Of a stretch of DNA of 64,000 nucleotides, positions 7,249 through 46,798 are shown piece by piece. The stretch is from an uncultured Gammaproteobacteria bacterium. GTDB lineage: Bacteria; Pseudomonadota; Gammaproteobacteria; Eutrophobiales; Eutrophobiaceae. The notes below the pieces were generated by a model. That model was not told where the DNA came from. It ran no database searches and saw only the letters and a program-made list of their open reading frames with translations. The stretch is taken from positions 124,001-188,000 of the forward strand of contig CATOTD010000001.1 of assembly GCA_951812995.1 (NCBI GenBank), written 5' to 3'. Every line of letters begins with the position of its first letter. The stretch's first letter is position 1. The position numbers and the translations under genes are program-made.

Positions 7249-9348
<2,100 letters not shown>

Positions 9349-28639: not shown

Positions 28640-28800
28640 GTCGGGCTAGTGTCGCTCCTCGTAGGCTAGGCGTGGTTGGGCTGGGGTGTGGCCGGGTTGA
28701 GCTGAGTCGGGCCGGGGTCGGTTTGGGTTGGGCTGAGTCGGGCCGGGCCGGGGGTGTGGTTGGGCTGTGTTGAGCTGAGTCAAGTCGAGCCGGGCGGCGT
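28640..28800 (+). repeat. G-rich degenerate pentamer (RGYYG) tract T1
   Basis: gttgagctgagtcgggccggggtcggtttgggttgggctgagtcgggccggg... Confidence 0.75.
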
Positions 28801-28885: not shown

Positions 28886-29947
28886 ATGCCTATCTACGAG
28901 TTTACCAGCGACGCAATCTGCCCAATCCACAAGACCACCTTCAGCCAGAAACAGCTACAGGAGCGGTACGACCTGCAACGCCTGCTACGGGCCAACATCG
29001 CTGTGATCGCGCCCGATGTTCTGGTGATTGCCGAAGAGTTTGGGGACTGGGACGAGTCGCGGCGGCGCATCGATCTCCTCGGCATCGACCGCGATGCCAA
29101 CCTCGTCGTGATCGAACTCAAGCGAACGGAAGACGGCGGCCACATGGAGTTACAGGCGGTCCGCTATGCGGCGATGGTCTCAACCATGACCTTCGACCAG
29201 GCCGCCGAGGCATTCAAACGCTATCTCACAAAGATCGACCAAACTGAGACGGATGCAGAGGCCGAACTGCTCGATTTTCTTGGGTGGGATGAGCCCGATG
29301 AAGATGCCTTCGCACAGGACGTGCGGATTGTCCTGACCGCGGCCGAGTTTGGCCGCGAGCTGACCACCTCGGTGCTCTGGCTCATCGAACGAGCCGTTGA
29401 CATTCGCTGCGTGCGCCTTCAGCCCTATAGTATTGATGACCGAGTGCTGGTTGACGTTCAGCAGATCATCCCGTTGCCCGAGGTGGCAGAATATCAAGTC
29501 CAGATCAGCGAGAAGAAACGCAAGGGGCGTGCACCGCGCTCGGGCATAAAAGACCCCCGCTATGATGTCACCCTCGGTGAGCGCCAGTTGTCAATGCTTT
29601 GGAAGCGGCACGCCATTTATCAGATATTCCGCTATCTCGTGGAAAACGGCGTTGCCCCGGCGCAGATCGCCGAGCAATGCGGCAAGATGGCCAAGCATGC
29701 CCTCGTGTCGGTCGATGGCGAGGTGGTGGGAGATGAATTTTCTCGCTTGGCGAAGGAGGCCCTAGCCAAGGAGGGACGGAGTTCCAATCTCACACGTTTC
29801 TTTAGCAAAGACGACGAGTTGGTGTACTTCGGTGGGCGCACCTATGCGTTCTCGAACCAATGGGGTGGTGAAAATTGGGAGCAGGCCATGCACAACATAC
29901 ACAATGCCTACACGGATAAGGGGATCGATTTCACCAAATCAGACTAG
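28886..29947 (+). CDS. putative PD-(D/E)XK nuclease-like protein, GC-rich
   Basis: RRIDLLGIDRDANLVVIELKRTEDGGHMELQAVRYAAMV resembles a D...ExK core; flanked by RGYYG tracts. Confidence 0.65.
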   Translation: MPIYEFTSDAICPIHKTTFSQKQLQERYDLQRLLRANIAVIAPDVLVIAEEFGDWDESRRRIDLLGIDRDANLVVIELKRTEDGGHMELQAVRYAAMVSTMTFDQAAEAFKRYLTKIDQTETDAEAELLDFLGWDEPDEDAFAQDVRIVLTAAEFGRELTTSVLWLIERAVDIRCVRLQPYSIDDRVLVDVQQIIPLPEVAEYQVQISEKKRKGRAPRSGIKDPRYDVTLGERQLSMLWKRHAIYQIFRYLVENGVAPAQIAEQCGKMAKHALVSVDGEVVGDEFSRLAKEALAKEGRSSNLTRFFSKDDELVYFGGRTYAFSNQWGGENWEQAMHNIHNAYTDKGIDFTKSD

Positions 29948-30118
29948 CCAGATCAGCCTGGTCAGCCGTCCGTCCGTAGACCGACTGTTGCAATAACCTG
30001 ATATGATGATGAACCTTGTGCTTGCCGACACGGTTATCGCTCAGACTGACGATGCGATAGCCGACTGGTCAAGCCTCTCATCCAGCTTGCGCACCACCCA
30101 CAACCTACCATCCGAGCT

Positions 30119-30509
30119 GAGAACTTTGCATAAAACACCACACTTGAAGATTTTTTATTCTGGCTATGGCTCAATTTTAAGCCATTAGGGGTGGTGTGGT
30201 CAAGACGAGCGTGGGTTGAGCTGGGTTGAGCTGAGTCGGGTTGGATCGAGCCAGGGCGTGGTTGGTCAGGGGTGTGGTTGGGTTGAGCTGGTCTGGGTGT
30301 GGTTAGGCCGGGGCGGCGTTGGCCAGGGGTGTGGTTGGGTCGGGGCGGGTTGGGTTGGGTCGAGCCGGGATGTGTTTGAGCGTGGCCGGGATGTGGTTGA
30401 TCTGGGTTGATCTGAGTCAAGTCGGGCCGGGGCTGAGTTGAGTGTGGTCGGGTTGGGTTGGGTTGGGCTGGGCCGGGTCGGACAAGTATCGCTTTAGTGC
30501 AAAGGTCTC
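30119..30509. mobile_element. MITE-like element copy 1 containing RGYYG tract T2
   Basis: Ends GAGAACTTTGCAT / GTGCAAAGGTCTC; internal hairpin ATGGCTCAATTTTAAGCCAT; counterpart at 45138..46525. Confidence 0.7.
30205..30483 (+). repeat. RGYYG pentamer tract T2 with G-quadruplex-type runs
   Basis: GGTTG AGCTG GGTTG AGCTG AGTCG GGTTG...; GGGTTGGGTTGGGTTGGGCTGGGCCGGG at 30450..30477. Confidence 0.85.
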
Positions 30510-30568
30510 GCACTGCGTTGCTCGTCCTTAAACGCGGCTCGCAGATTGCCGTTGCCGTTTTAACTCAA

Positions 30569-31871
30569 CTGGAAGCCTCTAAAAACCGTGCATTTTGTGG
30601 TGTGATCTGATTCACTTGATGTGGGAGGATTTTGTTTATGCACGCACCTGGATTGTTTGATTTGACGGATCATTTGGCGCGGCTTTCGGCGATGGGATAT
30701 CCGCTTGAGGTTTTGGAGCGGCACGTTGATTTCGAAGTGTTTCGCCCAGTTCTTGTTGAAGCGCTTGGCTATGGGGAACGTCCCAAAGGTGGTCGCCCGC
30801 CCTATGATGCCGTTGTGATGTTCAAGGTGCTGGTGTTGGCCTCGATGCACAATCTGAGCGATGAGCGGATGGAGTTTCTCATTCGTGACCGTTTCAGTTG
30901 GTTGCGGTTCCTGGGATTTCAAATCGGGGAGCCGACACCTGATCAGAAGACGATCTGGCTTTTCAGAGAGAAGCTGACCTAGGCGGGTGTCTTCAAGGCC
31001 CTGTTTGCCGCGTTTGAAGCTCAGCTCTGCGCGCGGGGATACAAACCGACCGGCGGTCAGATTGTGGATGTCACGTTGGTCTTTGCCCCGCGCCAGCGGA
31101 TGACGAAAGAAGAGAAAGCGCGCGCCAAGGCAGGTGAGACCGCATCTGACATCTGGCCCGATGGTCTGTCCAAGGCAGCGCAGAAAGACACCGATGCGCG
31201 TTGGACGGTCAAGTATTCAAAGGCCAAGACGACCAAGGAGGGTGAGGAGGACGCGGGCCTTGTCGATATTTCGGTTCCCCACTTTGGGTACAAGAACCAC
31301 GTGTCCATAGACCGCAAATGGCGCTTCATCCGGGGTGAGACTGGCACGAATGCGGCTCGCTACGACGGGCATGAACGCTCCTCGGTTCTGGACGAGACAA
31401 ACAGCTCGAAGGCGGTTTGGGCCGATACTGGATATCGGTCGTCCAAGAACGAAGACTGGCTCAAAGCGCAAGGGTACCGCTCACATATCCATCGCAAGAA
31501 GCCACGCGGCAAACCCATGGCCAGGCATATTCGCCAGGGCAACGCGACACGCTCCGCCATCCGCGCCTGTGTTCGGCTACGAGAAAGGGCCCATGGCTCT
31601 GACCATCCGCTCAATCGGCCAAACCCGTGCGAAGGCCCGCATGACCATGGCCAACCTGAGCTACAACTTCCGCCGTCTCATTTTCCACGAGCGACGACAG
31701 GCCACAGCCTGACTCCGCCCAAATTCCGGAAATACCCGCCCTGGCAGTCCCAAACAGCGCAACACAGCCTCAAATACCACCGACCTTGACCTTCACACCC
31801 ACTATGCGGGTGACAACGACTGGTGCTCGCGTCAAAACCCATCCAGAATCAGCGTTGTTCGAGGTCTCCAA
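30569..31871 (+). mobile_element. IS-A copy 2 (IS5-type), disrupted transposase
   Basis: ORFs 30632..30982 and 31064..31789; same TAG as copy 1. Confidence 0.92.
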
Positions 31872-43087: not shown

Positions 43088-43293
43088 GATGGCCGGATCG
43101 AGTATGGGTCAGGCTGGGTTGGGTCGGGCTGGGTCAAGACGGGTGTGGCCGAGCGGGAGCACGGCGGACCGGAGCCGGGTCGGGCGTGGCTGGATCAAGC
43201 TGGAGCCGGGTTGAGCTGGGCCGAGTCGAGCGTGGCCGGGCGGGAGCGCGGCGGATCGAGGTTGAGCTGGGTTGGGTGTGGTCAGGCGGTTGG
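43088..43293 (+). repeat. RGYYG-type G-rich tract T3
   Basis: gggtcaggctgggttgggtcgggctgggtcaagacgggtgtgg...; four GGG runs at 43116..43133. Confidence 0.75.
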
Positions 43294-45124: not shown

Positions 45125-45164
45125 AGTATGACAGCCTGAGACCTTTGCACTAAAGCGATATTTG

Positions 45165-45230
45165 ACCCACGCCACGCGCGACTCAGATCGACTTGACCCA
45201 GTCCGATCCCGCTCGATCTAGTCCAATCAT
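45165..45230 (-). repeat. short RGYYG-type tract T4 (G-rich on the minus strand)
   Basis: cgactcagatcgacttgacccagtccgatcccgctcgatctagtccaatc. Confidence 0.6.
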
Positions 45231-45270
45231 GCCCAGTGGCTGAAAATTGAGCCATCGCCGAAATAAAAAT

Positions 45271-46494
45271 CTGGAAGCCTCTAAAAACCGTACATTTTGT
45301 GGTACGATCTGATTCACTTGATGTGGGAGGATTTTGTTTATGCCCGCACCTGGATTGTTTGATTTGACAGATCATTTGGCGCGGCTTTCTGCGATGGGAG
45401 ATCCGCTTGAGGTTTTGGAGCGGCACGTTGATTTCGAAGTGTTTCGCCCAGTTCTTGTTGAAGCACTTGGCTATGGTGACCGTCCCAAAGGTGGTCGCCC
45501 GCCCTATGATGCCGTTGTGATGTTCAAGGTGCTGGTCTTGGCCTCGATGCACAATCTGAGCGATGAGCGGATGGAGTTTCTCATTCGTGACCGTTTCAGT
45601 TGGCTGCGGTTCCTGGGATTTCAAATCGGGGAGCCGACACCTGATCAGAAGACGGTCTGGCTTTTCAGAGAGAAGCTGACCTAGGCGGGTGTCTTCAAGG
45701 CTCTGTTTGCCGCGTTTGAAGCTCAGCTCTGCGCGCGGGGGTACAAACCGACCGGCGGTCAGATTGTGGATGCCACGTTGGTCTTTGCCCCGCGCCAGCG
45801 GATGACGAAAGAAGAGAAAGCGCGCGCCAAGGCAGGTGAGGCCGCATCTGACATCTGGCCCGATGATCTGTCCAAGGCAGCGCAGAAAGACACCGATGCG
45901 CGTTGGACGGTCAAGTATTCAAAGGCCAAGACGACCAGGGAGGGTGAGGAGGATACTGGCCTTGTCGATATTTCGGTTCCGCACTTTGGGTACAAGAACT
46001 CTCCTCGGTTCTGGACGAGACAAACAGCTCGAAGGCGGTTTGGGCCGATACCGGGTACCGCTCGGCCAGGAATGAGGCTTGGCTGAAGGCGCAAGGGTAC
46101 CGTTCACATATCCATCGCAAGAAGCCACGCGGCAAACCCATGGCCAGGCATATTCGTCGGGGCAACGCGACACGCTCCGCCATCCGCGCATGTGTTCGGC
46201 TACGAGAAAGGGCCCATGGCTCTGACCATCCGCTCAATCGGCCAAACCCGTGCGAAGGTCCGCATGACCATGGCCAACCTGAGCTACAATTTCCGCCGTC
46301 TGATTTTCCACGAGCGACGACAGGCCACAGCCTGACTCCGCCCAAATTCCGGAAATACCCGCCCTGGCAGACCCAAACAGCGCAACACAGCCTCAAATAC
46401 CACCGACCTTGACCTTCACACCCGCTATGCGGGTGACAACGACTGGTGCTCGCGTCAAAACCCATCCAGAATCAGCGTTGTTCGAGGTCTCCAG
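45271..46494 (+). mobile_element. IS-A copy 3 (IS5-type), disrupted, with an additional ~79-bp internal deletion
   Basis: ORFs 45334..45684, 45766..46086; nested in the MITE-like element. Confidence 0.92.
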
Positions 46495-46528
46495 ATTCAA
46501 ATGCAGTATTTTGTGCAAAGGTCTCAGG

Positions 46529-46798
46529 CTAGCGGATAGAGAAATCAGGATAGGTCTGATATGCAACGGCGACACATTCTAGTTTGACGACCTTTGCCAT
46601 ACCAGGACCACGCGCCAGCCATGTACGAAATGCTTCCAGTACCGCATCTTCACCACTTGCTAAAACTTCGACCCGTCCATCAGCCAAGTTTCTGATCCAG
46701 CCCGCGACACCCAATGATGTAGCCCGCTTGCTGGCCGACATACGAAAAGAGACCCCTTGCACCCGACCGCTCACAAAACAATTAATCGACTTTTTCAT
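46529..46798 (-). CDS. acyP: acylphosphatase
   Basis: MKKSINCFVSGRVQGVSFRMSASKRATSLGVAGWIRNLADGRVEV. Confidence 0.95.
   Translation of the reverse strand: MKKSINCFVSGRVQGVSFRMSASKRATSLGVAGWIRNLADGRVEVLASGEDAVLEAFRTWLARGPGMAKVVKLECVAVAYQTYPDFSIR

What the first reader, a model, noticed from the sequence alone, without database searches (positions are those of the whole stretch)
30119..30509. MITE-like element with IS5-like terminal repeats wrapped around a G-rich pentamer tract
Left end GAGAACTTTGCATAAAACACC..., right end ...TATCGCTTTAGTGCAAAGGTCTC. Inside are a near-palindrome ATGGCTCAATTTTAAGCCAT and ~280 bp of RGYYG pentamers. The reverse-complement counterpart at 45138-46525 has the same order: GAGACCTTTGCACTAAAGCGATA, pentamer tract, GTGGCTGAAAATTGAGCCAT hairpin, then TTCAAATGCAGTATTTTGTGCAAAGGTCTC. 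Shared ends, hairpin and tract with different tract lengths (391 vs ~164 bp) indicate a small non-coding mobile or repetitive family carrying a variable G-rich payload. From memory, the ends resemble those of some IS5-family (IS1106-like) elements; I could not check this.
Basis: partly seen in the sequence, partly recalled or inferred. Interest (0 to 1): 0.78.

Follow-up and report, generated by a model that had tools for sequence, protein, structure and literature searches.

The report
Miniature transposons carrying a five-base minisatellite
The finding is a real family of dozens of short non-coding transposons, probably moved by a borrowed IS5-type enzyme, each carrying a G-rich tract of loosely repeated five-letter units; they amplified in one bacterial species only, and the closest published parallel is BrickBuilt in Porphyromonas gingivalis.

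Summary
30119-30509 and 45138-46525 are two copies of one element: 12-bp inverted ends GAGACCTTTGCA/TGCAAAGGTCTC, a conserved left arm with a weak hairpin, a G-rich tract of RRGYY pentamers of variable length, and a right arm. Copy 2 is split by a 1.2-kb IS5-family insertion sequence. The genome holds 97 ends with at most 1 mismatch (5 in reversed-pattern controls). Eighteen complete copies show exactly 5-bp target duplications (6 exact, shuffles 0.55; 64/90 identities, never reached in 5000 shuffles). The proS-acyP site of copy 2 is empty in 8 of 8 congeners. Neither the left end nor the tract occurs as a family in 57 related genomes. The same ends flank an IS5-family transposase gene in another gammaproteobacterium (235.7 bits, cut-off 140), and same-end MITEs elsewhere also duplicate 5 bp. 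This is therefore an IS5-type MITE with an internal minisatellite, the architecture published as BrickBuilt in Porphyromonas gingivalis, which has the same ends. New here are the host, the degenerate RRGYY unit and its purine/pyrimidine constraint. A tempting link between tract unit and target duplication (both 5 bp, both RRNYY) is only partly supported.

The parts
30119..30509 (+). Element copy 1 (391 bp), complete MITE-like element
   Evidence: left end GAGAACTTTGCA (1 mismatch), right end TGCAAAGGTCTC (exact)
30119..30165 (+). Left arm with left inverted end
   Evidence: Arm profile hit E=3e-17; left-arm alignment
30166..30185 (+). Near-palindrome ATGGCTCAATTTTAAGCCAT, part of the conserved left-arm block
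   Evidence: block seen, with variation, across 24 aligned left arms
30213..30479 (+). RRGYY pentamer tract (G-rich strand is +)
30483..30509 (+). Right arm CAAGTATCGCTTTAGTGCAAAGGTCTC
   Evidence: Arm profile hit E=3.2e-8
30114..30118 (+). Left target flank GAGCT (right flank 30510-30514 GCACT; degraded duplication, 3/5 identical)
45138..46525 (-). Element copy 2 (about 168 bp of element plus a nested IS)
   Evidence: right arm, tract and hairpin at 45138-45272, left end at 46493-46525
45165..45235 (-). Pentamer tract of copy 2, short and degenerate (G-rich strand is -)
45236..45255 (-). Near-palindrome of copy 2
45273..46492 (+). IS5-family insertion sequence (about 40 copies in genome) nested in copy 2; transposase frame broken
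   Evidence: copies; DUF772; transpos_IS5_4 below cut-off for the fragment
45133..45137 (+). Target flank AGCCT of copy 2 (other side 46526-46530 AGGCT, 4/5 identical)
30571..31869 (+). Second copy of the same IS, 61 bp right of element copy 1 (neighbour, not part of the element)
43106..43292 (+). Pentamer tract with no recognisable arms, between rlmH and proS
28663..28791 (+). Pentamer tract with no recognisable arms, upstream of the gene at 28886

Best explanation
The elements are a family of non-autonomous miniature transposons (MITEs). Their ends are those of IS5-family insertion sequences of the ISNme1-like class, so an IS5-family transposase acting in trans presumably cut and pasted them (inferred), making 5-bp target duplications at a palindromic A-Y-[R-R-N-Y-Y]-R-T site (duplication and target shown). 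Between the arms lies a G-rich minisatellite of degenerate RRGYY pentamers. It probably grows and shrinks by replication slippage or unequal recombination after insertion, which makes each copy's tract length and sequence its own (inferred). The family spread in this species after it split from its congeners (shown at one site and by absence elsewhere), sits between genes, and now looks mostly inactive: many ends and duplications are decayed and no intact partner transposase was found in the loci searched.
For: 97 ends with at most 1 mismatch against 5 controls. Shared ends, arms and tract in complete copies. Of 56 tracts loaded, 17 have both arms, 27 one arm, 12 none. Target duplication of exactly 5 bp in 18 unique complete copies: 6 exact against shuffle mean 0.55, 64 identities against 37.7, 0 of 5000 shuffles; no other length shows it. 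Palindromic target logo at 85 ends. proS-acyP site empty in 8 of 8 congeners. Left end 39 times in G000 against isolated hits in 4 of 57 relatives. Six-unit tracts 137 times in G000 and otherwise only in one unrelated AAGTT/AAGCT repeat. Autonomous IS with these ends and a transposase above the IS5 cut-off (L261). Same-end MITEs in other genomes make 5-bp duplications too. ISNme1 end identical in the first 12 bases (PMC4596501).
Against: No intact transposase with matching ends was found in this genome; the closest relative of the L261 transposase is a fragment (45% identity over residues 69-209). Many tracts have one arm or none. Copy 1 in the window has a poor duplication (3/5). Slippage as the cause of tract variation is inferred, not shown.
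Confidence: 0.9

Rival explanations
1. The tract is tied to transposition itself: its unit is a repeated target duplication (same length, 5 bp, same RRNYY pattern), added each time the transposase makes a staggered 5-bp cut in the tract that is filled in and rejoined.
For: Duplication is exactly 5 bp. RRNYY lies directly outside 40 of 85 ends, against 0-5 per end set at other offsets. In-phase units keep purine/pyrimidine class at positions 1, 2, 4, 5 (ts:tv 908:195; position 2 248:15, position 4 272:28) but much less at the centre (64:47); right arms 85:46, IS copies 162:62.
Against: The full target wants a pyrimidine, mostly T, at outward position 7 (40 of 45 right flanks), whereas the tract has a purine there. 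The centre is free in targets but almost always G in the tract. The same-end family sampled in G099 uses a similar outer target (A-NNN-T, then R-T) yet the elements printed carry no such tract. A 5-bp unit that rotates to RRNYY is not rare by chance.
Confidence: 0.1
2. The tract is kept for a structure or function in RNA or single-stranded DNA: RRGYY repeats pair with themselves as 4-bp stems separated by G-G mismatches, or act as a terminator or boundary between genes.
For: RNA fold of copy 1 gives runs of 4-bp stems with one mismatch every 5 bases, z -4.9 on + and -3.9 on -. The purine/pyrimidine constraint is weaker at the unpaired centre. Ends face gene 3' ends 51 times against 32.
Against: The inverted ends themselves add to the z-scores. 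No Rfam family. The 3'-end bias is weak, and intergenic placement is expected from selection against gene disruption. Twelve tracts persist without arms.
Confidence: 0.2
3. Ordinary segmental duplication or local repeat expansion rather than a mobile element.
For: One pair of loci (C16:4361 and C2:760968) is a larger duplication with shared flanks.
Against: Other complete copies have unique flanks that diverge at the ends, with 5-bp duplications and an empty site.
Confidence: 0.02

Closest known systems
BrickBuilt MITE of Porphyromonas gingivalis (Klein et al. 2015, PMC4596501)
   Same: Same 12-bp ends (GAGACCTTTGCA/TGCAAAGGTCTC in BrickBuilt_4), IS5-family ends, unrepeated leader and tail around an internal tandem repeat of variable length, intergenic, largely species-restricted, many copies with decayed ends, predicted long stem-loops
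   Different: 23-nt repeat unit instead of degenerate RRGYY pentamers; different host (P. gingivalis); about 19 copies; target duplications of inconsistent length
MITEPgRS/MITE464 of P. gingivalis (described in PMC4596501)
   Same: MITE with IS5-like GAGACTGTTGCA end and internal tandem repeats
   Different: 41-nt repeats, repetitive flanking segments, ends differ by two bases
ISNme1 and its proposed MITE ATR in Neisseria meningitidis (described in PMC4596501)
   Same: Ends GAGACCTTTGCAAAA identical over 12 bases; non-autonomous derivative of an IS5-family IS
   Different: No pentamer tract reported there; ISNme1 is a full-length IS
Same-end MITEs in other gammaproteobacteria (loci L218-L229, G099) and the 1233-bp IS at L261
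   Same: GAGACCTTTGCAC(A/G)AA or GAGACCTTTGCATAAAA ends; 5-bp target duplication in many of the MITEs
   Different: MITEs are short (about 40-300 bp) with unrelated interiors and no G-rich tract in those printed; L261 encodes a transposase

Membership tests
[quoted passage not shown]
   Complete uninterrupted copies run from 90 to 651 bp; frames inside copy 1 are low-complexity translations of the tract
[quoted passage not shown]
   12-bp ends, 41 exact and 97 with at most 1 mismatch
[quoted passage not shown]
   5 bp only, 0 of 5000 shuffles
[quoted passage not shown]
   One site tested: 8 of 8 congeners empty
[quoted passage not shown]
   None found in loaded loci; only a transposase fragment related to that of L261
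IS5 family (non-autonomous derivative) | Ends shared with an IS encoding an IS5-family transposase | tested here: met
   L261 ends and transposase 235.7 bits, cut-off 140; ISNme1 ends in the literature
IS5 family (non-autonomous derivative) | Mobilised by that transposase | not testable with these tools
   Needs a transposition assay
BrickBuilt | IS5-like ends GAGACCTTTGCA | tested here: met
BrickBuilt | Internal 23-nt tandem repeat | tested here: not met
   Unit is 5 bp; lag-5 identity 0.50 against 0.36 at lag 4 and 0.35 at lag 6

The most novel reading that the evidence does not exclude
The element builds its own payload: the tract is made of fill-in duplications left by its transposase, so unit length equals the 5-bp stagger and unit pattern follows the enzyme's RRNYY target preference, giving a minisatellite that records or buffers transposase activity.
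Probability: 0.1. Interest if true: 0.75.

Novelty: new variant of a known kind. Interest (0 to 1): 0.42.

Why it matters
It is a second, apparently unrelated case of an IS5-type MITE with the same ends that carries a minisatellite, which suggests that this class of ends tends to pick up or generate tandem arrays. The family is private to one species, abundant, and has readable empty sites, so it can show how a bacterial minisatellite arises inside a mobile element. A class-wide 5-bp target duplication with a palindromic target was not given in the papers found, where BrickBuilt duplications were of inconsistent length.

Tried and rejected
Segmental duplication: rejected, except for one locus pair. 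The ~40-copy IS nested in copy 2 as partner: its ends (GGAAGCCTCTAAAAAC, and GGAGACCTCGAACAAC at the other side) do not match. The ~45-copy 1056-bp IS: its ends GGAACCTCTGATTAAT do not match. Viral contigs: no exact 18-mer end. Genome-wide scan of named genomes: only 6 scattered exact 19-mer hits, one of them a same-end MITE in a betaproteobacterium with no tract. Tract-only locus 43106-43292: no empty site could be read, because rlmH is not followed by proS in the congeners. Hairpin covariation: the block is conserved but stem pairs are not clearly compensated (read by eye, not scored). A G-quadruplex role was considered and not tested; the many AA and GA units argue against strict selection for it. 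My first reading, that the tract is a run of perfect target sites, was weakened by the outer target position and by the G099 family.

Full report
What is there. The window lies in a 3.05-Mb draft genome (G000, 17 contigs). Element copy 1 (30119-30509) and copy 2 (45138-46525, other strand) share the order: left end GAGACCTTTGCA, a conserved left arm with a near-palindrome, a tract of RRGYY pentamers, and a right arm CAAGTATCGCTTTAGTGCAAAGGTCTC. Copy 2 is 1388 bp long only because an IS5-family IS of about 1.2 kb, present about 40 times in the genome, is nested between hairpin and left end. The same IS lies 61 bp right of copy 1.

Family. TGCAAAGGTCTC with at most 1 mismatch occurs 97 times, against 5 for the reversed pattern. 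I fetched about 100 loci and found 85 distinct ends in recognisable arm context. The complete uninterrupted copies run from 90 to 651 bp; a few longer or odd pairs in that list are chimeras with other IS or chance pairs. Five-unit RRGYY runs occur 209 times. Of 56 merged tracts in the loaded loci, 17 have both arms, 7 only the left, 20 only the right and 12 none. Only part of the genome was loaded, so these are samples.

Mobility. In 18 unique complete copies read in one orientation, left and right flanks agree over exactly 5 bp: 6 exact duplications (shuffle mean 0.55) and 64 of 90 identities (mean 37.7), neither reached in 5000 shuffles; lengths 2-4 and 6-8 show nothing. At 85 ends the outward flank reads R-R-N-Y-Y-R-T at both ends, so the target is a palindrome, A-Y-[RRNYY]-R-T. 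The element between proS and the acylphosphatase gene is absent from all 8 congeners in which the site was found, with the same convergent gene order and only a short spacer. The left end (up to 3 mismatches) occurs 39 times in G000 and as isolated hits in 4 of 57 relatives; six-unit tracts occur 137 times in G000 and otherwise only as one unrelated AAGTT/AAGCT repeat.

Which transposase. Scans of related and class-mate genomes found MITEs with the same ends but other interiors, several with 5-bp duplications. In G099, sampled over 0.48 Mb, 12 of 26 pairs show exact 5-bp duplications and the flank logo is A-N-N-N-T followed by R-T. One locus (L261) is a 1233-bp IS with these ends and a transposase scoring 235.7 bits against NCBIfam's IS5 model, cut-off 140. 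The published ISNme1 end is GAGACCTTTGCAAAA. So the class is IS5-family. In G000 itself, where IS5-like transposases are very numerous, the closest relative of the L261 transposase is a fragment, and no intact partner with matching ends was found.

The tract. Dominant units are GGGTC, GGGTT, GAGTC and GGGCT. For in-phase units, positions 1, 2, 4 and 5 vary mostly by transition (908:195 overall; position 2 248:15, position 4 272:28), while the centre does so much less (64:47); right arms give 85:46 and IS copies 162:62. Counts are units, not independent events, because units are copied within arrays. Most transversions at positions 1 and 5 come from a second motif, GCGTGG. Lag identity peaks at multiples of 5 and is slightly higher at 10 and 20. 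Apart from a few locus pairs, tract sequences are only moderately more alike between loci than pentamer-shuffled copies are, while arms align readily, so tracts appear to diverge faster than arms. Copy 1 folds as RNA better than shuffles on both strands (z -4.9 and -3.9), with 4-bp stems separated by single mismatches every 5 bases on the + strand; the inverted ends contribute to that.

Tract and target. Unit length and RY pattern of the tract equal those of the target duplication, which suggested that the tract is built from duplications. Against it: the target wants a pyrimidine at outward position 7, where the tract has a purine; the centre is free in targets but G in the tract; and the same-end family sampled in G099 carries no tract in the elements printed. 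I keep it as a minority hypothesis.

Known kinds. BrickBuilt (PMC4596501) is an IS5-type MITE with the same ends around a 23-nt minisatellite in P. gingivalis. The present family is the same kind of object with a different host, arms and repeat unit. It is a new variant of a known kind, not a new category.

Noticed in passing
window 8686-8909: A 45-bp tandem repeat, 5 copies, 91% matches; it appears to lie within a coding region (peptide repeat), not checked further.
   Followed up: no
window 43106-43292: Pentamer tract without arms exactly where rlmH is followed by proS, an order not seen in the 10 congeners read; the tract may mark a rearrangement junction.
   Followed up: partly
genome G000, many contigs: Extreme IS load: 150 DDE_Tnp_1 matches, including a ~40-copy and a ~45-copy IS5-family element, many with broken frames.
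   Followed up: partly
G099 (loci L319-L342): A 2.0-Mb class-mate genome with 182 matches to GAGACCTTTGCANRAAA, mostly 159-bp MITEs in the sampled part, with 5-bp duplications.
   Followed up: partly
C4:125270-125304: An element end nested inside another element's left arm at AATCT, a target-like site.
   Followed up: no
C1:278221-278871 and C8:27904-28259: Longer elements share an extra internal module (CCGTTTTTTAGACGG... GGCTTGCGTTTGTTACCGACTTCTCGCCCGC...) before the tract; origin unknown.
   Followed up: no
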